Notes under the pieces: model-generated
Databases searched by the model: none
Seen by the model: the letters and a program-made list of their open reading frames with translations, nothing else
Told to the model about the DNA's origin: nothing
Part shown: positions 16,921-64,000 of the stretch, piece after piece
Position numbering within the stretch: the first letter of the stretch is position 1
Layout of the letters: each line of letters starts with the position of its first letter
Assembly (NCBI GenBank): GCA_947479475.1
Contig: CANJZW010000008.1
Span: forward strand, 1-64,000
Direction: 5' to 3'
From: Chthoniobacteraceae bacterium
Lineage (GTDB): Bacteria; Verrucomicrobiota; Verrucomicrobiia; Chthoniobacterales; Chthoniobacteraceae
DNA: 64,000 bases
Program-made: the position numbers and the translations under genes

Positions 16921-17733
16921 ATGATCCGTTCATTTTCTTTTGCTTCCCTCGCGTTGGTTGTTGGCGTCACGGCCGCGCAGGCTGAAAAAATTGTCATCAA
17001 GGGTTCCGACACCCTCGGTGCGAAGCTCGTGCCGCAGCTGGCCGAAGCCTACAAGGCAGCCAATCCCGGGACTGAATTTTCCATCGCAGCAGAAGGCTCC
17101 ACAACGGGCCTCGCTGCAATCATCGACGGCAATGCGGACATCGGTATGTCCAGCCGCCGCGCAAAACCTACGGAACAGTCCGCGGCCGGCGCAAAGAGCG
17201 TCATGTTGATGCCCACGATCGTGGCGTATGACGGCATCGCCGTGGTTGTGAACGAAAAAAACCCCATCAAGGCGCTGACCAAAGCCCAGGTGGAAAAACT
17301 TTTCACGGGTGATGTGAATGACTGGAGCGCCGTCGGCGGAAGCCCCGGGAAGGTCTCCATCTACACACGCAACACGTCCTCCGGCACGTATTCGGACTGG
17401 AAGGAACTGGCGATGAGCAAGCGCGATTACGCGGGTGGTTCGCAGAAGCTGGCCGGCAACGAGCAGATCGTGGCTGAAGTTTCTAAAAACCCCAACGCGA
17501 TTGGGTACGTAGGACTGGCTTACATCAAGTCCCCCGGCCTCAAGGTGGTGGCGATTGACGGCCTCGTTCCCAACAAGGCGACGATCCAGGGCAAAACCTA
17601 TCCGTACAGCCGGCCGACCTTCTATTTCACCAACGGCGAGCCCGCTGGCAAGGCGAAGGCCTTTGTGGATTTCACGCTGAGCGCCAAGGGGCAGGCGATT
17701 GCCGAGCAAGTCGGCTTTGTGTCAATTAAGTAG
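16921..17733 (+). CDS. pstS: Phosphate ABC transporter substrate-binding protein PstS
   Basis: A 270-residue periplasmic phosphate receptor. A Sec signal peptide (FSFASLALVVGVTAAQA) is followed by the family start IVIKGSDTLGAKLVPQLAEA and phosphate-binding segments AEGSTTGLAAIIDGNADIGM and TRNTSSGTYSDWKEL. The type is the short PBP-like PstS typical of many Gram-negatives. First gene of pstSCAB-phoU. Confidence 0.95.
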   Translation: MIRSFSFASLALVVGVTAAQAEKIVIKGSDTLGAKLVPQLAEAYKAANPGTEFSIAAEGSTTGLAAIIDGNADIGMSSRRAKPTEQSAAGAKSVMLMPTIVAYDGIAVVVNEKNPIKALTKAQVEKLFTGDVNDWSAVGGSPGKVSIYTRNTSSGTYSDWKELAMSKRDYAGGSQKLAGNEQIVAEVSKNPNAIGYVGLAYIKSPGLKVVAIDGLVPNKATIQGKTYPYSRPTFYFTNGEPAGKAKAFVDFTLSAKGQAIAEQVGFVSIK

Positions 17734-53188: not shown

Positions 53189-54442
53189 ATGGATACCTCC
53201 CCCCAACCCAAGTCTGTCCCAAAGAGCTCCCACATCAAGATCGTGGCGCTGGAAACGGTCATTCCCGACGACATCATGCCGGGACTCCTTCTCCTGCGGA
53301 TTCATACGGATAACGGCCTCATCGGCCATGGGGAAACCTACTATGCCCCCCACGCGGTCGCCGCCCTGATTCACGACTGGATGGGCCGCCGGCTTCTGGG
53401 CTCCGACCCGCTTTCCATCGAGAACCACTGGCGTTTTCTTTACGAAAGAGCCTCCGCCTTCGGGGGGCGAGGCGCCGAGTTACGGGCGCTGAGTGCGATT
53501 GATCTGGCGCTTTGGGATATCCTTGGCCAGGCCCTCCAGTGCCCGGTCTGGCAACTGCTCGGGGGCAAAGCCCGCGAAAAAGTCCGTGTTTACAACAGTT
53601 CCGGCGGGCCGACTTATGGCAGACGCGCTGGCGAAGCCCGCGACCAGGGCTGGCCCGGCCACGGTGACATGGGCAAACCCGGTCCGCTTGAAGACAACTG
53701 GGCGTCCAACTTTGCCGCGGGAGATCTGGCGGAGGAATTACTTTCCGAAGGGTACACCGCCATGAAATTTTGGACCTTCGACCGGGCCTACCACCAATAC
53801 GGGCCGCATTTTCTGCCCTGGACGGCAGTGAAGGAATGCATCCGCCCGATGGAGGAGGTGCGCTCACGCGTGGGCGACCGGATGGAGATCCTGCTCGATG
53901 GACACGGCTTTTTCCAGTTGCCGGCGGCGTTGCGGATCGCCGAAGCGATGCGCGACCTCAAGCCGCTCTGGTTGGAGGATGTTCTGCGCGTAGACAACGT
54001 CGATACGCTGTCGGATTTCCGCCAAAAAGCCGGGGTCCCCGTGGCGGTAAGCGAAATGCTCCCCACCCGAGAGGAATACCGGTTGGTCCTTGAGAAACGC
54101 GCCGCCGACTACGTGATGATCGACCCGACTTGGGTGGGCGGGATCAGTGAAACCCGGCGCCTGGCCGAACTGGCGCAGGTCTACAATATTCCGGCCACCA
54201 TGCACGATTGCACCGGGCCGCTCACTCTATTTGCGGGGTTGCACGTGGCAACTGCCGTGCCAAACGTTGTCTTCCAAGAATCCGTGAGGGCGCACATCCG
54301 CACCTTCTACAGCTCGCTCATTGATACCAACGTGATGATCGAGAACGGGTTCGCCCTCCCTCCAGAAGGGCCGGGCCTGGGCACTAGACTGCTGCCCTCG
54401 CTTTTTGCGCCGGAGCACAACGGCTACCGGATCTCGCGTTAG
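53189..54442 (+). CDS. Enolase-superfamily sugar-acid dehydratase-like enzyme
   Basis: A 417-residue mandelate racemase/muconate lactonizing enzyme-like protein. N-terminal capping domain (IPDDIMPGLLLLRIHTDNGL, GHGETYYAPHAVAALIHDWM), barrel with metal ligands Asp in EILLDGHGFFQLP, Glu in LWLEDVLRVDNVD and Glu in VAVSEMLPTREEY, and the His-Asp pair region MHDCTGPLTLF. It resembles D-galactonate/mannonate-type dehydratases; substrate unknown. The cytochrome gene starts 40 bp after it, so a shared operon is likely. Confidence 0.87.
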   Translation: MDTSPQPKSVPKSSHIKIVALETVIPDDIMPGLLLLRIHTDNGLIGHGETYYAPHAVAALIHDWMGRRLLGSDPLSIENHWRFLYERASAFGGRGAELRALSAIDLALWDILGQALQCPVWQLLGGKAREKVRVYNSSGGPTYGRRAGEARDQGWPGHGDMGKPGPLEDNWASNFAAGDLAEELLSEGYTAMKFWTFDRAYHQYGPHFLPWTAVKECIRPMEEVRSRVGDRMEILLDGHGFFQLPAALRIAEAMRDLKPLWLEDVLRVDNVDTLSDFRQKAGVPVAVSEMLPTREEYRLVLEKRAADYVMIDPTWVGGISETRRLAELAQVYNIPATMHDCTGPLTLFAGLHVATAVPNVVFQESVRAHIRTFYSSLIDTNVMIENGFALPPEGPGLGTRLLPSLFAPEHNGYRISR

Positions 54443-54482
54443 CCCTGATCGGAATTCCCGGGGCCGCTTATATTTTTCAAAA

Positions 54483-56834
54483 ATGAATCCCCGCCTACAC
54501 CGGTTCATCGCTCTTTTTCCTTTCGTCCTCAGTGCGTCCCTGGCTGCAAACGCGGCTCCCGCAGCTTCAGTCGACGCAAAACTCTCGGGCGGCACGGGGT
54601 TTAGCCGCGAACAAGAGGCTTTTTTTGAACAGAAGGTCAGGCCTCTGCTCGTAGAAAAATGTTTCTCCTGCCACTCGGTGGAGTCCAAAAAACAAAAGGG
54701 CGGTCTGCTTCTGGACTCGCGAGATGCCATCCTCAAGGGCGGGGACTCCGGGCCGGCGGCGCTGGCCGGACAGGCTGCCGAAAGTCTATTGCTCCGGGCC
54801 GTCCATTATGGGGAGCCCGACCTTCAGATGCCCCCCAAGGAAAAACTCGCCCCTAGGGAGGTCGCGGTTTTGGAACAATGGGTGGGGGGTGGGTTGCCTT
54901 TTCCGGCGGCGCCCTCGGTGGCCGCCACCCGTCGCAAGATCGATCTTTCAGAGGGGCGTAAGTTCTGGGCCTTCACCCCGCTCGCAAAAACCGAACCTCC
55001 CCTCCAAACCGGAGGGACAACCACCCGACGGTTGGATGCCTACATTCACGCGAAACTTCAGGAGCACGGCATGACACCCGCCCCCGAAGCGCCCAAGGCT
55101 GTCCTCTTGCGCCGCGCTAAGTTTGACCTGACTGGACTGCCACCCACTCCGGAGGAACTGGCTTCTTTCGAAGCGGATGCCTCGCCGGACGCCTATGAAA
55201 AGCGGGTCGATCAGTGGCTGGCCTCTCCCCAATACGGTGAACGGTGGGCGCGTCAATGGCTGGATTTGGTGCGGTACTGCGACGTGGGGGAGTCCTGGAT
55301 GGAATCGAAAGGGAAATCCTACCCATACCGGGACTGGACGATTCAGGCGCTCAACGAGGACGTTCCCTACAACCGTTTCGTCGCCCTCCAGCTCGCCGCT
55401 GATTTAATGCCGGACGCCCGCCCCTCGGACCGCTCTGCCTTGGGGTTCATCGGACTCAGCCCGACCTACTGGAAGGAATTGCAGCTGCCTGTGGAAATCA
55501 TCAAGACGATCGTTTCGGATGAATACGAGGAACGCGTCCACACGCTATCGAGTGTCTTTTTTGGAATCAACCTGGCGTGTGCCCGCTGCCACGATCACAA
55601 GTTTGACCCGTTCACAGCCGAGGACTACTACGGAATCGCAGGGGTCTTCGCCAGCACACGCACGGCCGAGCAGGCCTTGGAGAAGGATGTGGATGCGGTC
55701 CGCGTTGCCGGCCTGAGGGAGCAAGTTTCGAAGCTGGAGGCGGAAGCGAAAAAGCTCAAAGCGCAGAAAGGCCAGGAGGTGGCCTCAAAAGTCACGGAGG
55801 CAGAAACGAAGATCGCAGCCCTCAAGGCGGATCCACAGTACGAGGCGACGCTCGTCACGGGCGCGCGCGAGGGGAGCCTCAAGGTGGAGGCCGCCGTGGG
55901 GAAACATGGCAGCAGGATCATCTACACAGAAACCCCGCAGGACCTTGCCCTGGAAGTCCGCGGCAATCCCAACCGGACCGGGGCGGTTGTCGAGCGGCAT
56001 CTCCCCGCGGTTTTTTCGGTGGGTGCACCAGTCAAGTTTTCCTCAGGGAGCGGGCGTCTGGATTTGGCGAAAGCGCTTTTCTCCGAGGCCCGTGATCTGG
56101 TGGCTAGGGTGATGGTCAACCGGATGTGGACGGCACACTTCGGGACAGGGATCGTGGGCACTCCCAGCGATTTTGGGATGCAGGGGGAAAGACCGACCCA
56201 TCCGGAACTCCTGGACGATTTGAGCGCCCGGTTTGTGGAAAACGGCTGGTCCATCAAGTGGCTCCACCGAGAAATCATGCTTTCAGCGACCTACCGGCAG
56301 GTGTCCGGAGTGGCGCCGGACGGAGACCCGGAATTGCGTTTTTACTCCCGTTTTCCGCGCCGGCGTTTGGAGGTTGAGCAGTGGCGGGATGCGTTGCTTT
56401 CCGCGAGCAACACCCTTGACCTGCAGATGGGTGGCCCTGCGATCGAACTCTCGGAAGCCAACAACAAGCGGCGCACTGTGTACGGGCTTGTAAGGCGCCG
56501 TGAGCTTTCAGACATCCTTCGCCTGCACGATTTTCCCGACCCCATCACGCACGCCCCTGTGCGGCTTCCAACGACCACGCCGCTGCAGCAGCTTTTCACG
56601 CTCAACAGTCCATTGCTGCAGCAGCAGTCCTTGGCGCTCGCCCGGAGGCTGGCCGCAGAGTCCAGCGATTCGCGCCAGCGCATCACCCGGGCTTACGTCC
56701 TGCTTTTCGGCCGGCCTCCCACTCCTTCGCAAACCGAGCTCGGATTTGCGTTCGTTGGTGAGGGCCGCGAAACCCTCTGGCAGGAGTACCTTCAGGTTCT
56801 CATGGGGAGCAACGAGTTCCTCTTCATCGATTAA
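54483..56834 (+). CDS. DUF1549/DUF1553 planctomycete-type cytochrome
   Basis: A 783-residue secreted protein starting at ATG 54483 with a signal peptide (FIALFPFVLSASLAANA). Domains: PSCyt1 with heme motif CFSCHSVESKKQKGG, DUF1549 with a second heme motif CARCHDHKFDPFTAED, a coiled region (REQVSKLEAEAKKLKAQKGQ), and C-terminal DUF1553 (EARDLVARVMVNRMWTAHFG). Like the DUF1592 type, it is exported through Sec for periplasmic heme attachment, and a Tat-exported partner follows 19 bp later. Confidence 0.92.
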   Translation: MNPRLHRFIALFPFVLSASLAANAAPAASVDAKLSGGTGFSREQEAFFEQKVRPLLVEKCFSCHSVESKKQKGGLLLDSRDAILKGGDSGPAALAGQAAESLLLRAVHYGEPDLQMPPKEKLAPREVAVLEQWVGGGLPFPAAPSVAATRRKIDLSEGRKFWAFTPLAKTEPPLQTGGTTTRRLDAYIHAKLQEHGMTPAPEAPKAVLLRRAKFDLTGLPPTPEELASFEADASPDAYEKRVDQWLASPQYGERWARQWLDLVRYCDVGESWMESKGKSYPYRDWTIQALNEDVPYNRFVALQLAADLMPDARPSDRSALGFIGLSPTYWKELQLPVEIIKTIVSDEYEERVHTLSSVFFGINLACARCHDHKFDPFTAEDYYGIAGVFASTRTAEQALEKDVDAVRVAGLREQVSKLEAEAKKLKAQKGQEVASKVTEAETKIAALKADPQYEATLVTGAREGSLKVEAAVGKHGSRIIYTETPQDLALEVRGNPNRTGAVVERHLPAVFSVGAPVKFSSGSGRLDLAKALFSEARDLVARVMVNRMWTAHFGTGIVGTPSDFGMQGERPTHPELLDDLSARFVENGWSIKWLHREIMLSATYRQVSGVAPDGDPELRFYSRFPRRRLEVEQWRDALLSASNTLDLQMGGPAIELSEANNKRRTVYGLVRRRELSDILRLHDFPDPITHAPVRLPTTTPLQQLFTLNSPLLQQQSLALARRLAAESSDSRQRITRAYVLLFGRPPTPSQTELGFAFVGEGRETLWQEYLQVLMGSNEFLFID

Positions 56835-56853
56835 TTTCCAACCACGCACCCTC

Positions 56854-58209
56854 ATGGACCTCCCCCTTTTCAGCCGGCGCCGCGCCCTCCAAACTGTGGC
56901 AGCGGGCCTGGGCACCGCTGCCCTCGCCGACATCCTCCATGCCGCGCCTTTAAAAGCCCCTCATTTTCCGGCACGCGCCAAGCGGGTGATTCATCTGTTC
57001 ATGAACGGCGGGCCCTTTCAATGCGACCTTTTCGACCCCAAACCGGAGGCCAATCGTCTCGCAGGAAAGCGTCCTGATGCGGCGGATCTGCGCACCGAGC
57101 GACCCACCGGGGCGTTGATGGGGGTGCCGTTTGAGTTCAAGCAGCACGGCCAAAGCGGGACGGCCATCAGCGAACTGCTCCCCAACACGGCGCGTCATGC
57201 GGACGAATTGTGCGTGATCCGCTCGATGCACACCGACAATCCAAACCACGGCCCCGCCTTGTTTATGATGAACAACGGCACGCTTACCCCCAACAGGCCC
57301 ACCCTCGGGGCCTGGCTCTCCTACGGACTGGGCAGTGAGAATGAAAACCTGCCCAACTTTGTCGCGTGTTGCCCGGGCAGGCCGGTGCGTTTTTCCGAAT
57401 TGTGGTCCAGCGGGTTCCTCCCCGGTGAACACCAGGGGATGTACGTCAACCACACGAATCTGGATCCCAAAAAAATGATCCCGTTCCTCTCCAACACCCA
57501 GATTCCGCCGGCCGACCAGTTGCGCCAGTTGGAGCTGATGCGCCGCCTTAATTCAGAGCACCAGAGCTTGCGCGGCGGCGACCCAAACCTGGAAGCGCGC
57601 ATCCGGGCGATGGAGACGGCGTACCGCATGCAAATCGACGCCTCGGACGCCTTTGACGTGGAGAAGGAACCGGCTTCGATTCGGGAGGCGTATGGAAAGG
57701 GGCACTTCGCCAACGGCTGCATTTTAGCGCGCCGATTGGCCGAACGTGGCGTGCGTTTTATCCAAGTCTACTACGGCAATGGGCAGCCATGGGACACCCA
57801 TTCCAAACACAACGAAACCACTCGCAAACTCTGCGCCGATATCGACCAACCCGTTGCCGCGCTGCTCAGCGATCTCAAAAGCCGTGGTATGCTGGAGGAC
57901 ACCCTTGTGGTGTGGGGCGGGGAATTTGGGCGGACGCCCACTACCGAAAACGCGGACGGCCGCGACCACAACCCGTGGGGATTTACCATGTGGATGGCCG
58001 GCGGCGGAAGCCGAGGTGGGACCACTTACGGCGAAACCGATGAGTTCGGCTTCCGGGCCGTTTCCAACAAGGTCCACATTCACGATCTACACGCCACCAT
58101 TTTACATCTGATGGGGTTTGATCACGAAAAACTCACCTACCGACACGCGGGGCGCGACTACCGGTTAACCGACGTGTCGGGGGAAGTGGTGCATCCGATC
58201 CTCGCGTGA
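56854..58209 (+). CDS. DUF1501 family protein, Tat-exported
   Basis: A 451-residue protein starting at ATG 56854; open sequence further upstream belongs to the overlapping cytochrome frame. The Tat-like signal is FSRRRALQTVAAGLGTAAL. The body shows the DUF1501 blocks RVIHLFMNGGPFQCDLFDPK, AELLPNTARHADELCVIRSM-like sequence and LVVWGGEFGRTPTTENADGR, a fold related to alkaline phosphatase and sulfatases. It completes the third Sec-cytochrome plus Tat-partner pair. Confidence 0.92.
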   Translation: MDLPLFSRRRALQTVAAGLGTAALADILHAAPLKAPHFPARAKRVIHLFMNGGPFQCDLFDPKPEANRLAGKRPDAADLRTERPTGALMGVPFEFKQHGQSGTAISELLPNTARHADELCVIRSMHTDNPNHGPALFMMNNGTLTPNRPTLGAWLSYGLGSENENLPNFVACCPGRPVRFSELWSSGFLPGEHQGMYVNHTNLDPKKMIPFLSNTQIPPADQLRQLELMRRLNSEHQSLRGGDPNLEARIRAMETAYRMQIDASDAFDVEKEPASIREAYGKGHFANGCILARRLAERGVRFIQVYYGNGQPWDTHSKHNETTRKLCADIDQPVAALLSDLKSRGMLEDTLVVWGGEFGRTPTTENADGRDHNPWGFTMWMAGGGSRGGTTYGETDEFGFRAVSNKVHIHDLHATILHLMGFDHEKLTYRHAGRDYRLTDVSGEVVHPILA

Positions 58210-58425
58210 GCGGTCGGTCGGCTACAACTTCGACGGAACGAGTGAGAGACTGTCCGTGAATGGCCGCAGCGAGTTGGAATGCGACCAGCCCACCCACGCC
58301 CCAGACGTGCGAGATGAGGACGGAGGCGGCTTTGAGATTGCGCTGGGCGGGTTCTCCGAAGCAGTTCAGGCCCTATGCCAGGCATAGATTTCGCGCTCTT
58401 TGTCGGTGAGGTCGCACTCGCTCAT
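58210..58425 (-). pseudogene. Truncated, frameshifted MoeB/ThiF-family relic
   Basis: An ATG at 58425 overlaps the modC stop (ATGA) and starts MSECDLTDKEREIYAWHRA, then TGA. A +2 frame shift gives CFGEPAQRNLKAASVLISHV and WGVGGLVAFQLAAAIHG. Together these match the N-terminal ThiF/MoeB/HesA region (YxRQ...FGxxGQxxLKxAxVLxxGxGGLG), including a damaged nucleotide-binding loop. It then ends at the 3' end of the DUF1501 gene, so about 200 codons or more are missing. The adenylyltransferase MoeB activates the molybdopterin sulfur carrier. Confidence 0.7.
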
Positions 58426-59072
58426 GGGGCGAATTCAAGGGGGCTGACGGCGCCGTCGGCGAGCAGAAAAAGGTGGTCGGCGAGCTGACAAGCTTCCTGG
58501 CGGTGGTGGGTGATGTGGAGGGCGGTTAATCCCAAGCTGCGCTGCACCTTCTTTAAAAGGGCGACGAGGTCCGCGTGGGTTTCTTCGTCGAGGGCGGAGA
58601 GTGGTTCGTCCAGAACCAGCGCTGAGGGTTCCGCTGCGAGGGCGCGTCCGAGGGCGACCCGCTGGCGTTCGCCCCCCGAGAGGTGGGCGGGTTTGCGGTC
58701 CAACAAATGGGAGATGCCAAGCAGTCCTGCGAGGCGTTCCACGGAGGGGGCGGAGGCCGCGGGTTTGAGCCCGCGAATCCGGGAGACAAAGGCGAGGTTT
58801 TCGCGGACGGTCATCGTGGGGAAAAGGGCGCCGTCCTGCGGGACGTAACCAATGCCGCGTTTGCCGGGCTCCCGGTCTGAGATGTCCTGGCCGTTGATCC
58901 AGACGCGCCCGGAGTAGGGCACTCTGAGGCCGCAGAGGATTTCAGCTAGGGTGGTTTTCCCGCAGCCGGTGCGGCCCATGAGCATGCCGTATTTTCCAAA
59001 GGGCACATCGAAGGATACCGGGCCGAGTTCAAAGGTGCCGGCGCGCCAGCGGATTTTGTCGAAGCGGATCAT
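58422..59072 (-). CDS. modC: Molybdate ABC transporter ATP-binding protein, short form
   Basis: A 216-residue ATPase from ATG 59072; open sequence upstream overlaps modB. Walker A GRTGCGKTT, VPQDGALFPTMTVRENLAF, signature LSGGERQRVALGRALAAEPS, Walker B LVLDEPLSALDE and switch His in ALHITHHRQEA are intact. The C-terminal Mop/TOBE molybdate-sensing domain of classical ModC (about 350 residues) is absent, so feedback by bound molybdate is probably lost. Last intact gene of modABC. Confidence 0.87.
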   Translation of the reverse strand: MIRFDKIRWRAGTFELGPVSFDVPFGKYGMLMGRTGCGKTTLAEILCGLRVPYSGRVWINGQDISDREPGKRGIGYVPQDGALFPTMTVRENLAFVSRIRGLKPAASAPSVERLAGLLGISHLLDRKPAHLSGGERQRVALGRALAAEPSALVLDEPLSALDEETHADLVALLKKVQRSLGLTALHITHHRQEACQLADHLFLLADGAVSPLEFAP

Positions 59073-59101: not shown

Positions 59102-59884
59102 TTACACGCGTTCGCCTGCTTTGCGCACGGCGAGCAGAACGGCTCCTGCGAAAAGTACCATGAGCAGGCTGACGGCCACGGCGGCCTCCAGATTGCCCAC
59201 GCTCAGTTCGAGCCAGACCGTGGTGGGGAGCACCTCCGTTTTCATGCGGGTGGCTCCGGCAAAAACCAGAATGGGGCCGAATTCCCCCAGGCTGTGCGCC
59301 CAGGCGACACTGGCAGCCGCAAAAACCCCGCCCCGGGCGCTGGGTAGAGTGACCCACCAGAAGGCGCGGGCGCGGGAGCAGCCAAGGGTCATGGCCACCG
59401 CTTCGGGGCGGGGGGAGAGGTGGTCAAAAGTGCCGCGCATGGTGCGGATCGCAAAAGCGGCGCCGATCACGAACTGGGCGACGATCACTCCGTAGACCGT
59501 GTACGTCAGGGGAACGGCCTTTTCTAACATGCGTCCGAGGGGCGTCTGGAAGAAAATGAGCAGCGCCAGTCCGACGACCATGGGGGGAAGGACGATCGGG
59601 ACGTCCAGCACGACTTCCACCAGGGTTTTGCCCGGGAATTGGGTGCGCGAGAGCAGGTATCCCGCCGGCACCGCAAACACGACGGAGAGCAGCGCAGTGG
59701 AGGTGCACGTCACGATGCTCAGGTAAACGGAGTGCTGGATTTCGCGGCTCAAGAGCGCCTTGAGAAGGTGCCCGGGCGTGCTGTAGGAGGCCGTGGCGGC
59801 GAGCATCCCCAGAATGAAAAGGGTGTAGCCTCCGGTCAGGAGTGCGAGTAAAAGCCAGAAGGCGCTGAAACGGGGTGTTTTCAA
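59102..59884 (-). CDS. modB: Molybdate/tungstate ABC transporter permease
   Basis: A 260-residue membrane protein starting at TTG 59884, 7 bp after the modA stop. Membrane helices begin with FSAFWLLLALLTGGYTLFIL. Permease blocks: VVFAVPAGYLLSRTQFPGKT, LDVPIVLPPMVVGLALLIFF and EAA loop ALGCSRARAFWWVTLPSARG-like sequence (actual: VAMTLGCSRARAFWWVTLPS). The ModB type of permease with CysT-like fold. It pairs with modC below and modA above. Confidence 0.9.
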   Translation of the reverse strand: MKTPRFSAFWLLLALLTGGYTLFILGMLAATASYSTPGHLLKALLSREIQHSVYLSIVTCTSTALLSVVFAVPAGYLLSRTQFPGKTLVEVVLDVPIVLPPMVVGLALLIFFQTPLGRMLEKAVPLTYTVYGVIVAQFVIGAAFAIRTMRGTFDHLSPRPEAVAMTLGCSRARAFWWVTLPSARGGVFAAASVAWAHSLGEFGPILVFAGATRMKTEVLPTTVWLELSVGNLEAAVAVSLLMVLFAGAVLLAVRKAGERV

Positions 59885-59891
59885 AGGATGC

Positions 59892-61424
59892 CTAATTATT
59901 CTTCAACCAGGCCGGAACTTCGATCTCTTTGCTGCGGATCGGCGCTTCGTCGCCGCGCCAGAGGAAGCCTGCCTTTTCAAAGGAGCCGCGATTGGCTTTG
60001 AGGAATTCAAGCAATCGCAGCGCGAGCTGTTTGTTGGGGGAGGCCGAACGCACGGCAAAGGGTTGGATCGCCTTGGCGCCCGCATGGAGAATCGGGACAA
60101 ACTCCAGAAGGCTGCGGCCTGCCTGCACGTTGATTCGGTGGACGATGGCGGCGTCCAGAGCGCCGGCCTGCATCTGGTTCACGAGAAAGTTTGCGGTGGG
60201 CACCTCGACGACCACGTTGCGTTGGATGCTTTCCAGAAGCCCCGAGGATTTGATGATCCCTTTGGTCATGTACCCCAGGGCGCTTTGTTCCGCATTACAC
60301 AGCCCGACGCGCAACCCCGCCTGTGCGAGGTCCCCCAGCGTTTTGACCCCCTTCGGGTTTCCCTGCCGAACGGCGATTCCGATGTCGGTTTCCGTGAGCA
60401 GGATCGCCTCAGGAAACTGCTCGGCCACCGGCGGCATAAAACAGACGTCGCACGCGTAGTAGACGTCGGGAACCTTGGAGGCGTCTGAGTTGCCCAGGTT
60501 TTTCATCGTCGCGCACAGGATCCCGCAGTCGTTGAAAACGGTAGTCATGCCGATGCCTTCGCGGGTGGCGAAGTCCTGGAGGAGCGACTCCACGGCGGGG
60601 CGGTTGATCCCTCCGCAGTAGAGGACCAGCTCTGGCTTTGGAGCCCACGCGTCGCCGGGAAGGGGGGTGAAGCCGACGCTTTTGAGCGCAATCCCCCCGC
60701 GTTCGGGCGCGGCGAGGAAACGGGCGAATTTCAGCGCTAGCGAGGGCTGGGTGCAGTCGGTCAAAATGGCGGCGCTGGCGCGTTCCGGTCTGGCGTCGAG
60801 TTCAGGCACATGGACGGCTTCGAGCCCTTGGAATTGGGGGATGAGCGCTTCCCAAAGGATGGCGGTGTCAACCGTACCGAGGGAAAGGTCTGCGGCAATT
60901 TCCGTCACTGTCGGTTTCATGACCGTCACCAATTCCGCGAGTTTATCCCAGCGGTCTCCGGCCACGGTTCGGGTGGTTTTGCCGACACTGGCGGTTTCAG
61001 GGTTTGAAATGGCCACGCGCACGCCCGTGCGCAGGAGGTCATCAAATGTGTGGATGCCCTTTGGATTGCCTGCGCGCACCGCGATCACGGGCGTTTGGCT
61101 TGCGAAGGGGAGCACCTCGCGCACGAGACCGTCCTTTTTGGCGATGGTGATCGAGGCATCGTCCGCGCCGATCAAAAGGTCGCCGGTATGGGCGACTCGG
61201 ATCTGGCTGAGCAAAGTGCCGGTGCCTCCAAACTGGAAGCGCACCTCGGCGCCGTCTTCTGCGGTGAAGGCGGCGGCCGCCGCCTCCAGGGGTTTGCGAA
61301 GGCCGGCCGCGCAGTACACAGTGAGGGCAGGTTTTTCCTGGGAGTTATTGGCGTCCCGGCAGGAGGGGAGGAAGAGCGCGAGAAAAAGGCAGTGGATGAT
61401 GAGGCGCAGAAACTGGCGTTTCAC
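59892..61424 (-). CDS. modA: Tandem-fused ModA-type molybdate-binding lipoprotein
   Basis: A 510-residue lipoprotein with two ModA-like binding domains in one chain. GTG 61424 overlaps the preceding stop codon (GTGA). Lipobox around Cys22 (LFLPSC). Domain 1 spans about 30-265 (LTVYCAAGLRKPLEAAAAAF, GGTGTLLSQI); domain 2 about 264-510 (ELVLYCGGINRPAVESLLQD). Domain 2 has extra cysteines at 270, 300, 304, 325, 328 and 376 (NDCGILC, ACDVCFMPP), absent from domain 1. The fusion could bind two anions or a metal; substrate is inferred from modBC. No ribosome site precedes it, consistent with coupling. Confidence 0.85.
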   Translation of the reverse strand: MKRQFLRLIIHCLFLALFLPSCRDANNSQEKPALTVYCAAGLRKPLEAAAAAFTAEDGAEVRFQFGGTGTLLSQIRVAHTGDLLIGADDASITIAKKDGLVREVLPFASQTPVIAVRAGNPKGIHTFDDLLRTGVRVAISNPETASVGKTTRTVAGDRWDKLAELVTVMKPTVTEIAADLSLGTVDTAILWEALIPQFQGLEAVHVPELDARPERASAAILTDCTQPSLALKFARFLAAPERGGIALKSVGFTPLPGDAWAPKPELVLYCGGINRPAVESLLQDFATREGIGMTTVFNDCGILCATMKNLGNSDASKVPDVYYACDVCFMPPVAEQFPEAILLTETDIGIAVRQGNPKGVKTLGDLAQAGLRVGLCNAEQSALGYMTKGIIKSSGLLESIQRNVVVEVPTANFLVNQMQAGALDAAIVHRINVQAGRSLLEFVPILHAGAKAIQPFAVRSASPNKQLALRLLEFLKANRGSFEKAGFLWRGDEAPIRSKEIEVPAWLKNN

Positions 61425-61520: not shown

Positions 61521-62057
61521 ACCGGCGCGGTGAGAAGTCCCTGTTTTCGGGGGGGAAACCTGATGGCCCCCAGTTTTTTGTCCCGGTGACTTTGAGTGAA
61601 TGGTCTCAGCCTGGATTTTGGCGCTTCACCTGGCAGGAGCGGGCGCCCTGTTTGCCGTTCCCATCAACGCGGAGGACAGCAGAAGGTCTGCCGAAACAAG
61701 GAGGGAAATGGGGCGTTGAAACATGGAAAGAAGCGGGAGAACGGTGCTTGAACACCGCAAAACGCTGGGGGTTGCGCTCGTACTGGTGGGGCTTGGAGGG
61801 GGAGTTTTCAGCCGCAAAGGAATACGCTGACTTTTTTGGACGGGGCAAATAGCTGAATGGCAAGACATCTCAGGGAAACCTTCATTTTCCCGAAGGTTTT
61901 TGAGGAATGGAAATAAAGACGCCTGTCTCATCAAAAACGCCTCGGGGTCCTCTTGCCTCAGGTTTATGCTAACGATTTCCCTCACGCTGGATTTAATGAT
62001 TAACTCTTTCGCAGCGTTTTTTCTGCCCTTAAACCGCTGTTTTTTTAATACCCCCTT
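61521..62057. other. Intergenic region between modA and the next dehydrogenase
   Basis: About 540 bp. A hairpin AACCTTC/GAAGGTT followed by TTTTTG at 61877-61901 looks like a terminator for plus-strand transcription although no plus-strand gene precedes it. No riboswitch-like structure of the Moco type was recognised. Other open frames have shadow composition. Confidence 0.4.
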
Positions 62058-64000
62058 ATGAACCTTCGGAAAACTGCTCTCCTTGCCGCCCTCTTTCAGT
62101 CTGTTTTACCCGCCGTCCATGCGGCCGAGCCTGTGGCGCCGAAAGCCGCCGCGCCTGCTGAGGATTCCTTTCCCAAGCAGCCGTCCATTGTGGGCATGAG
62201 CCCCTTGGAAACGTTAAAGACTTTCCAGCTCCCCAAGGGCTACCACATGGAGTTGGTGCTGTCCGAACCGGACATCAAGGAACCGGTCGCCGCCGTGTTT
62301 GATGGGAATGGGCGCATGTTCGTCGCGGAAATGCGCTCCTATATGCAGGACGCCGACGGCAATAACGAGCACGCAGCAAACAGCCGCGTCTCCCTCCACT
62401 GGTCGAGCAAGGGGGATGGGAAACTGGACAAACACACGGTGTTTATCGACAACCTGCTGCTGCCCCGCATGATCCTGCCGCTCGGTCCGGGGCAGCTGCT
62501 TGTCAATGAAACGGACACGCAGGACATCTATCTTTACGAGGACACGACAGGAAGCGGTGTGGCGGATAAAAAAACGCTTTGGTTCGAAGGGGGGCCTCGC
62601 GGCGGAAACCTCGAGCACCAGCAGAGCGGGCTGATTTGGGGGATGGATAACTGGTTGTACATGACCTACAACAACTGGCGTCTGCGGTGGCAGCCTGGTA
62701 CGGCGCCCCTCAAGGAGCCCATCGCAGCCAACGGAGGACAATGGGGCCTCGCGCAGGACGACTACGGCAAGCCCTGGATCGTTAACGCGGGGGGCGAGAA
62801 GGGGCCAATGAACTTCCAAACCCACATCCTCTACGCGGGGGTGAACCTCAAAAACCAGTTCTCCGAAGAATACTCGCAAGTCTGGCCTCTCGTCGGAATC
62901 GCGGACGTCCAGGGAGGCGAAAAGCGTTTCCGGCCCGAGGACAAAACGCTCAATCACTTCACGGCGACGTGTGGTACCGAGGTGTTTCGCGGCGACCGTT
63001 TGCCGGCGGACCTGCGAGGAGACTTGTTGTTTTCAGAACCCGTCGGACGTCTGGTGCGCCGCAGCAAGGTGGAAGTCAACGATGGGGTCACGACGCTTAA
63101 AAACGCCTACGAAAAGTCCGAGTTTATTCGCTCAACGGACCCACTCTCCCGTGTGGTCAACATGAACACGGCTCCGGATGGGACCCTCTACCTTGTGGAT
63201 ATGTACCGTGGCATCATCCAGGAGGGGAATTGGGTGAAGGAGGGGAGCTATCTCCGAAAAGTAGTCAGCCAGTATGACCTGGACAAGCAGGTGAGTATGG
63301 GTCGGATCTGGCGGCTCGTTCACGACGATTTCAAGCCGGGACCGCAGCCGCGTTTTTACGAGGCGTCTTCTGCAGAGCTCGCGGCGACTCTGGAACACCC
63401 GAATGGTTGGTGGCGGGACACCGCCCAGAAGCTGCTGGTTCTCCGGCAGGACAAGTCCGTCGTACCCGCGCTTGCAGGGCTTGCAGGCGGCTCAAAAAAT
63501 CCGATTGCGAGAATCCATGCGCTTTGGACTCTGGAGGGTTTGGGCGCCGCGGATGCCGCCATGGTGCGGAACGCTATGAAGGACGGGGATGCTACGGTGC
63601 GCGCGGCTGCAATCCGGGTGAGCGAGACGTTGGTCAAGGCAGGCGACGTCTCCCTTTTTCAAGACATCGTGGCGCTGGCGAAGGACAAGGACGGCTCGGT
63701 ATCGCTTCAGGCGATGTGCAGCGCGAGGTTGCTCAACCCCAATGAGGCGAAAGCTTTGCTCCAGTCTTGTCTGATGGGGGCAACGGGCCACTTTGCGCTC
63801 AAGGAAACCACTATGGAAATGCTCGCCCCAAAGCGTTCCTGGGGGAAGGAATTCAACGGAGATCAGAAGAATCTTTTGACCAAGGGAAACGATATTTTCA
63901 ATGAACTCTGCTTCACCTGCCACGGCGCCGATGGGAGAGGAACGCTCGTGGATGGAAAACCGGGTCTGACGCTCGCGCCTCCGCTCGCGTCGTCCCGCAC
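62058..64000 (+). CDS. PVC-type membrane-bound dehydrogenase with cytochrome c domain, 3' truncated by window
   Basis: A secreted protein from ATG 62058, open for 647 codons to the window end. A signal peptide (LLAALFQSVLPAVHAAEP) precedes the dehydrogenase propeller (LPKGYHMELVLSEPDIKEPV, FDGNGRMFVAEMRSYMQDAD, DMYRGIIQEG). A HEAT-type helical region follows (about 455-600), then a cytochrome c domain starts with NELCFTCHGADGRG near residue 617. The missing 3' end should complete that domain. Same architecture class as the 38393-41887 protein but with heme where that one has copper. Confidence 0.88.
   Translation, partial: MNLRKTALLAALFQSVLPAVHAAEPVAPKAAAPAEDSFPKQPSIVGMSPLETLKTFQLPKGYHMELVLSEPDIKEPVAAVFDGNGRMFVAEMRSYMQDADGNNEHAANSRVSLHWSSKGDGKLDKHTVFIDNLLLPRMILPLGPGQLLVNETDTQDIYLYEDTTGSGVADKKTLWFEGGPRGGNLEHQQSGLIWGMDNWLYMTYNNWRLRWQPGTAPLKEPIAANGGQWGLAQDDYGKPWIVNAGGEKGPMNFQTHILYAGVNLKNQFSEEYSQVWPLVGIADVQGGEKRFRPEDKTLNHFTATCGTEVFRGDRLPADLRGDLLFSEPVGRLVRRSKVEVNDGVTTLKNAYEKSEFIRSTDPLSRVVNMNTAPDGTLYLVDMYRGIIQEGNWVKEGSYLRKVVSQYDLDKQVSMGRIWRLVHDDFKPGPQPRFYEASSAELAATLEHPNGWWRDTAQKLLVLRQDKSVVPALAGLAGGSKNPIARIHALWTLEGLGAADAAMVRNAMKDGDATVRAAAIRVSETLVKAGDVSLFQDIVALAKDKDGSVSLQAMCSARLLNPNEAKALLQSCLMGATGHFALKETTMEMLAPKRSWGKEFNGDQKNLLTKGNDIFNELCFTCHGADGRGTLVDGKPGLTLAPPLASSR

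What the first reader, a model, noticed from the sequence alone, without database searches (positions are those of the whole stretch)
59892..61424. Tandem ModA in one lipoprotein with a cysteine-rich second domain
Two binding domains on one anchor are unusual for molybdate. Domain 2 alone has CxxxC (300/304) and CxxC (325/328) plus Cys270 and Cys376, hinting that it may hold a metal or disulfides and sense or bind something other than molybdate. With ModC lacking its sensing domain, control might have moved to this protein.
Basis: partly seen in the sequence, partly recalled or inferred. Interest (0 to 1): 0.6.

Follow-up and report, generated by a model that had tools for sequence, protein, structure and literature searches.

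The report
Two-lobed binding protein, cysteine pocket
This is a double substrate-binding protein of a bacterial importer whose second half has cysteines exactly where its molybdate-binding relatives touch their ligand; it belongs to a conserved, undescribed gene set that many relatives keep without any known use for molybdenum, and in this genome two of its partner genes have already decayed.

Summary
The tandem protein is real (window 59892-61424, minus strand, 510 aa). Its cysteines are not chance. C300 and C325 are invariant in all 54 distinct fused relatives. The first domain has Ser/Thr and Ala/Gly at those places in 52 of 52. By alignment they replace Ser39 and Ala58 of E. coli ModA, both ligand-contact positions. 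C304 and C328 (with C376) were gained together once, in the 17-member clade that holds the window. C270 is not conserved.

The protein sits in a conserved set not found described: a periplasmic CxC protein, an FtsX/LolD-type ABC pair, tandem SBP, ModB-like permease, ModC-like ATPase, a MoeB/ThiF-like E1 and, in some classes, an adjacent ThiS-family carrier. Fourteen of 53 genomes with the protein lack MoaA. Twelve of these keep the ModBC-like genes and also lack nitrogenase. So molybdate supply cannot be the general role.

In the window genome the CxC gene and the E1 gene survive only as relics beside the intact transporter genes. 'Regulatory control moved to this protein' has no support. Best reading: domain 2 holds a thiophilic ligand, sulfur-borne or a soft metal. 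The ligand is unidentified.

The parts
59892..61424 (-). Tandem substrate-binding protein, 510 aa, predicted lipoprotein (lipobox LPSC, Cys22)
60690..61325 (-). Domain 1 (D1, residues 34-245): ModA-like, with Thr and Ala at the lobe-A ligand positions; conserved Cys38
59964..60629 (-). Domain 2 (D2, residues 266-487): ModA-fold domain with the cysteine pocket
60525..60527 (-). Codon of Cys300 (N-G/D-C-G motif; aligns with E. coli ModA Ser39 / P. aeruginosa Thr60); invariant 54/54
   Evidence: contact lists from PMC9171197 and PMC8895017
60450..60452 (-). Codon of Cys325 (ACD motif; aligns with E. coli ModA Ala58 / P. aeruginosa Ala79); invariant 54/54
   Evidence: PMC9171197
60513..60515 (-). 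Codon of Cys304, 5-Cys clade (Cys in 20 of 54)
60441..60443 (-). Codon of Cys328, 5-Cys clade (17 of 54); never present without Cys304
60297..60299 (-). Codon of Cys376, all members of the 5-Cys clade plus 4 others
61311..61313 (-). Codon of Cys38 in domain 1 (VYCAAG), 49 of 52
59102..59884 (-). ModB-like permease (TIGR01581 E 9e-58, below that model's cut-off)
58422..59072 (-). ModC/WtpC-like ATPase without C-terminal regulatory domain (start inferred at MIRFDKIRW)
58262..58413 (-). Relic of the MoeB/ThiF-like E1 gene that follows modC in relatives: frameshifted start only (79% identity over 33 aa, then decay)
61588..61647 (-). Relic of the CxC-protein gene that precedes the tandem SBP in relatives: GARSCQVKRQNPG*D against GACSCQVKRQNPGWD of L038, internal stop
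   Evidence: 32 bits; best of 100 shuffles 25.8

Best explanation
This is a dual-receptor ABC import protein made by one ancient fusion of two ModA-type domains. D1 keeps an ordinary oxyanion-type pocket. In D2 the two lobe-A ligand positions have become cysteines (C300, C325), reinforced in one clade by C304, C328 and C376, so D2 most likely holds a thiophilic ligand in its cleft by its thiols. It works with a membrane-anchored periplasmic protein that has an invariant N-terminal Cys and a CxC motif, and in many genomes with an FtsX/LolD-type ABC pair, the ModBC-like importer and a cytoplasmic E1 (MoeB/ThiF-like) with or without a ThiS-family carrier. The sulfur-carrier genes make a sulfur-borne ligand (a thio-oxyanion or sulfane sulfur) slightly more likely than a soft metal ion. 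In the window genome the CxC and E1 genes have decayed, so the surviving transporter is probably a reduced or failing version. Shown: fold family, fusion history, cysteine conservation and position by alignment, gene association, relics, presence in genomes without known molybdenum use. Inferred: that the cysteines line the cleft in three dimensions, that they bind ligand, and what the ligand is.
For: C300 and C325: 54/54 D2, 0/52 D1. They align with E. coli Ser39 and Ala58, i.e. P. aeruginosa Thr60 (hydrogen bonds) and Ala79 (contact), per PMC9171197. One 5-Cys gain, 17 rows, SH-aLRT 99; D1 and D2 sets on separate branches at 100 and 95. Gene set. CxC-family presence (A2 or A3) matches D2 presence: 32 of 34 genomes, Fisher p 9e-35 over 286 genomes, relatedness not corrected. 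ThiS-family carriers beside the E1 in nine loci (six scanned with Pfam). Rhodanese lipoprotein and no ModBC in L041-L043. MoaA absent in 14 of 53 D2 genomes, MoeA absent in the 10 tested of these, nitrogenase absent except G244. Unfused second SBPs of related pairs carry His at the 325 position.
Against: No usable structure: models had mean pLDDT 41.8 and 60.1, with low confidence at the cysteine segments, so pocket geometry rests on alignment alone. No ligand data. The permease and ATPase look molybdate/tungstate-type, and most D2 genomes do have MoaA (39 of 53). All nine genomes with an operonic ThiS-family carrier have MoaA, so those carriers may be MoaD. A buried disulfide would give the same conservation.
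Confidence: 0.5

Rival explanations
1. D2 binds a soft metal ion (for example Cu(I), Zn or another thiophilic metal) by the Cys pair, exchanged with the CxC protein; the importer then serves metal uptake or delivery to a periplasmic enzyme.
For: Two to five clustered Cys, CxC partner with invariant N-terminal Cys, Cys/His variants at the same position in unfused relatives.
Against: No known metal-homeostasis genes were recognised as regular neighbours; the sulfur-carrier genes are not explained.
Confidence: 0.3
2. It is a molybdate or tungstate importer; D2 also binds these, with Cys adapting to thiomolybdate or fine-tuning, and MoeB/MoaD-like neighbours belong to Moco synthesis.
For: ModB/ModC similarity, D1 exactly at the TIGR01256 cut-off (62.5 bits), MoeB-like E1 and ThiS/MoaD-like carriers, MoaA in 39 of 53 D2 genomes including the window genome.
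Against: Twelve genomes keep SBP-ModB-ModC without MoaA or nitrogenase, most of them 90-97% complete; MoeA also missing in the tested ones. Ser39 is replaced by Cys in every D2.
Confidence: 0.2
3. C300-C325 form a structural or redox-switch disulfide across the D2 cleft; D2 is a non-binding spacer or a redox-gated lid for D1.
For: Periplasmic Cys pairs are often disulfides (general knowledge); both positions contact the same ligand in ModA by homology, so they should lie near each other.
Against: Invariant at ligand-contact positions; D2 is kept whole in L035/L036, where D1 has lost about 110 residues of lobe B, so D2 is not a mere accessory of D1.
Confidence: 0.2
4. In this genome the protein is a decaying leftover with no present function (compatible with any of the above for the family).
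For: Relics of both flanking genes; no intact A2 or A3 gene in the genome; six departures at positions invariant in the rest of its clade, against 0-3 for most others.
Against: All three transporter genes are open and full length, and all five cysteines are kept; a MoeB/ThiF-like 406-residue frame exists elsewhere (G000:C13).
Confidence: 0.25

Closest known systems
ModA of ModABC (E. coli, P. aeruginosa; PF13531, TIGR01256)
   Same: Fold family, order of motifs, adjacent ModB-like and ModC-like genes
   Different: Two domains in one chain; Cys at the Ser39 and Ala58 positions of D2; retained in genomes without Moco genes
GlnPQ tandem substrate-binding domains (PMC8025302)
   Same: Two substrate-binding domains in tandem, which in GlnPQ differ in ligand specificity
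   Different: GlnPQ domains are linked to the transmembrane subunit and bind amino acids; here the pair is a separate lipid- or TM-anchored protein
WtpABC / TupABC tungstate importers (PMC5517513)
   Same: The ATPase scores best with the WtpC model, though below its cut-off
   Different: No WtpA or TupA model was among the matches of the tandem protein; Cys pocket
MoeB/ThiF E1 with ThiS/MoaD carrier
   Same: E1 and carrier genes (PF00899, PF02597) adjoin the operon in relatives
   Different: Coupled to an importer with a cysteine-pocket receptor, and the E1 is kept without MoaA/MoeA in some genomes

Membership tests
ModA / molybdate-binding protein | Match to TIGR01256 at the curated cut-off | tested here: inconclusive
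   Whole protein 62.5 bits, equal to the cut-off, one stretch in D1 (39-241); none in D2
ModA / molybdate-binding protein | Ser/Thr at the E. coli Ser39 position and a small residue at Ala58, in each domain | tested here: not met
   Met in D1 (52/52), not met in D2: Cys and Cys in 54/54
ModA / molybdate-binding protein | Occurs with Moco or nitrogenase genes | tested here: inconclusive
   39 of 53 D2 genomes have MoaA; 14 do not, and only one of these has nitrogenase
ModA / molybdate-binding protein | Binds molybdate or tungstate | not testable with these tools
   Needs purified protein
SBP_bac_11 fold (PF13531) | Pfam match over cut-off in each domain | tested here: met
   154 and 94 bits against cut-off 25; Foldseek of the weak D2 model finds PEB3 and ModA-type structures first
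Metal or Fe-S binding protein | Bound metal at the Cys cluster | not testable with these tools
   Sequence shows conserved Cys only
GlnPQ-type tandem SBD transporter | SBDs fused to the permease subunit | tested here: not met
   Permease is a separate ORF, 59102-59884

The most novel reading that the evidence does not exclude
A previously undescribed uptake or exchange system of this phylum (tandem SBP with a thiol pocket, CxC membrane-anchored protein, FtsX/LolD-type pair, E1 and carrier) that handles a sulfur-borne or soft-metal ligand and is not a molybdenum system, although annotation pipelines would call it ModABC.
Probability: 0.4. Interest if true: 0.8.

Novelty: new variant of a known kind. 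Interest (0 to 1): 0.62.

Why it matters
Genes annotated as molybdate transporters are used to infer molybdenum use. Here a family with that look carries cysteines in the ligand position and persists in genomes without Moco genes or nitrogenase, so such inferences could be wrong. It also gives a directly testable candidate for a thiol-based periplasmic receptor with named partner genes.

Tried and rejected
Both are too weak to judge Cys distances, and no coordinates are returned. Relatives in viral contigs: none. Literature for a described tandem Cys ModA or this gene set: nothing found (open-licence library only). PQQ-like secreted proteins near the CxC genes and their paralogues were considered as the client, but the link is irregular. 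Promoter and terminator scan: nothing above chance. PF00384 matches in Moco-less genomes were not identified further: all 14 genomes matched, with matches of mixed extent, so they neither prove nor exclude a molybdoenzyme. The idea that ModC lost its sensor and control moved to the SBP was rejected for lack of any evidence. A relatedness-corrected co-occurrence test was not made.

Full report
Observation. The window encodes, on the minus strand, a 510-residue protein with two SBP_bac_11 domains, followed by a ModB-like permease and a ModC/WtpC-like ATPase without a regulatory C-terminal domain. Cys38 in domain 1 was overlooked.

Conservation. In 286 genomes of the class, 37 hold a relative of D2 that I count as fused (one of them, G120, is weak), and a further 16 were found in other classes of the phylum. 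Over 54 distinct D2 sequences C300 and C325 are invariant, whereas 52 D1 sequences have Ser/Thr and Ala/Gly there. C304 is Cys in 20, C328 in 17 (always with C304; Fisher p 2e-11, relatedness not corrected), C376 in 21, C270 in 6. A tree puts a set of 52 D1 rows (100), a set of 52 D2 rows (95) and the 5-Cys group (17 rows, 99; one change) each on its own branch: one old fusion and one later gain of the extra cysteines. Two D2 rows fall outside the starred set. Two other fused pairs (L099/L121, L122) lack the Cys and were set aside as a different kind.

Position. In the alignment C300 meets E. coli ModA Ser39 and C325 meets Ala58. In P. aeruginosa ModA the same positions (Thr60, Ala79; a constant offset of 21, my mapping) are a hydrogen-bond donor and a contact of the oxyanion (PMC9171197); Ser39 is listed as a contact for E. 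coli ModA (PMC8895017). C304, C328 and C376 are not in the contact list. Three-dimensional proof is missing because the models were poor. The weak D2 model still finds PEB3 and ModA-type folds first.

Related pairs. Some genomes have two separate adjacent SBP genes with ModBC, one with an ordinary pocket and one with His at the 325 position. A pair of one ordinary and one special receptor therefore seems to recur, with Cys/Cys or His solutions.

Gene set. Neighbourhoods share a membrane-anchored periplasmic protein family with no Pfam or NCBIfam match over threshold and an invariant N-terminal Cys plus CxC, an FtsX permease with a LolD-type ATPase, the tandem SBP, ModB, ModC and a MoeB/ThiF-like E1. 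The CxC family (A2 or A3) and D2 coincide in 32 of 34 genomes (pooled over the class genomes and not corrected for relatedness). In other classes ThiS-family carriers ending in GG stand beside the E1. In L041-L043 ModBC is absent and a rhodanese lipoprotein follows instead. L035 and L036 have lost lobe B of D1 but keep D2 whole.

Molybdenum. MoaA is missing from 10 of 37 D2 genomes of the class and from 4 of 16 others. MoeA is missing from all ten class genomes tested. Nitrogenase is absent from all 14 except G244. Twelve of the 14 keep ModB and ModC next to the tandem SBP. Incomplete assemblies cannot easily explain the joint loss, since most are 90-98% complete, but it is an absence argument, and PF00384 matches in these genomes were left unidentified. 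The window genome itself has MoaA and MoeA.

Decay in the window. Directly after modC lies a frameshifted start of the E1 gene (58262-58413). Directly before the tandem gene lies GARSCQVKRQNPG*D, a relic of the CxC protein (GACSCQVKRQNPGWD in L038), with an internal stop (32 bits against at most 25.8 in 100 mononucleotide shuffles). No intact CxC gene was found in the genome. The window D2 departs at six positions invariant in the rest of its clade. The order is thus the ancestral CxC - tandem SBP - ModB - ModC - E1 with both ends lost.

Reading. Domain 2 is a specialised receptor, most likely for a thiophilic ligand; sulfur-borne and soft-metal ligands cannot be told apart here. The sulfur-carrier neighbours lean to the first, the CxC partner fits both. 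Molybdate supply as the general role is unlikely. Regulation by this protein has no support.

Noticed in passing
L045, L071, L061, L072, L057, L063, L064, L044, L091, L107, L110, L119: Molybdate-type importer genes kept in genomes with no MoaA and no nitrogenase match; annotation as molybdate transporters could mislead.
   Followed up: partly
L123, L124, L125, L101, L102, L104, L106: Adjacent unfused SBP gene pairs with ModBC, one member having His in place of Cys325, often preceded by Cys (CHDP).
   Followed up: partly
L127-L138: Paralogues of the CxC protein away from the tandem SBP stand in part with FtsX/LolD-type ABC genes or with giant secreted PQQ-repeat proteins carrying laminin-G or malectin domains, one with a methyltransferase-like domain.
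   Followed up: partly
L035:4872-6194, L036:4881-6173: Tandem protein with about 110 residues of D1 deleted; no ModBC within the stretch held. L036 is titled Akkermansia muciniphila, which looks doubtful.
   Followed up: no
window 17023-17718 (+): A further weak SBP_bac_11 match (38 bits) in a 281-residue frame in the same window.
   Followed up: no
window 54405-58209 and 62058-63998: Flanking genes look like large secreted proteins with cytochrome-type CxxCH motifs and a twin-arginine-type secreted protein; not part of the transporter set.
   Followed up: no
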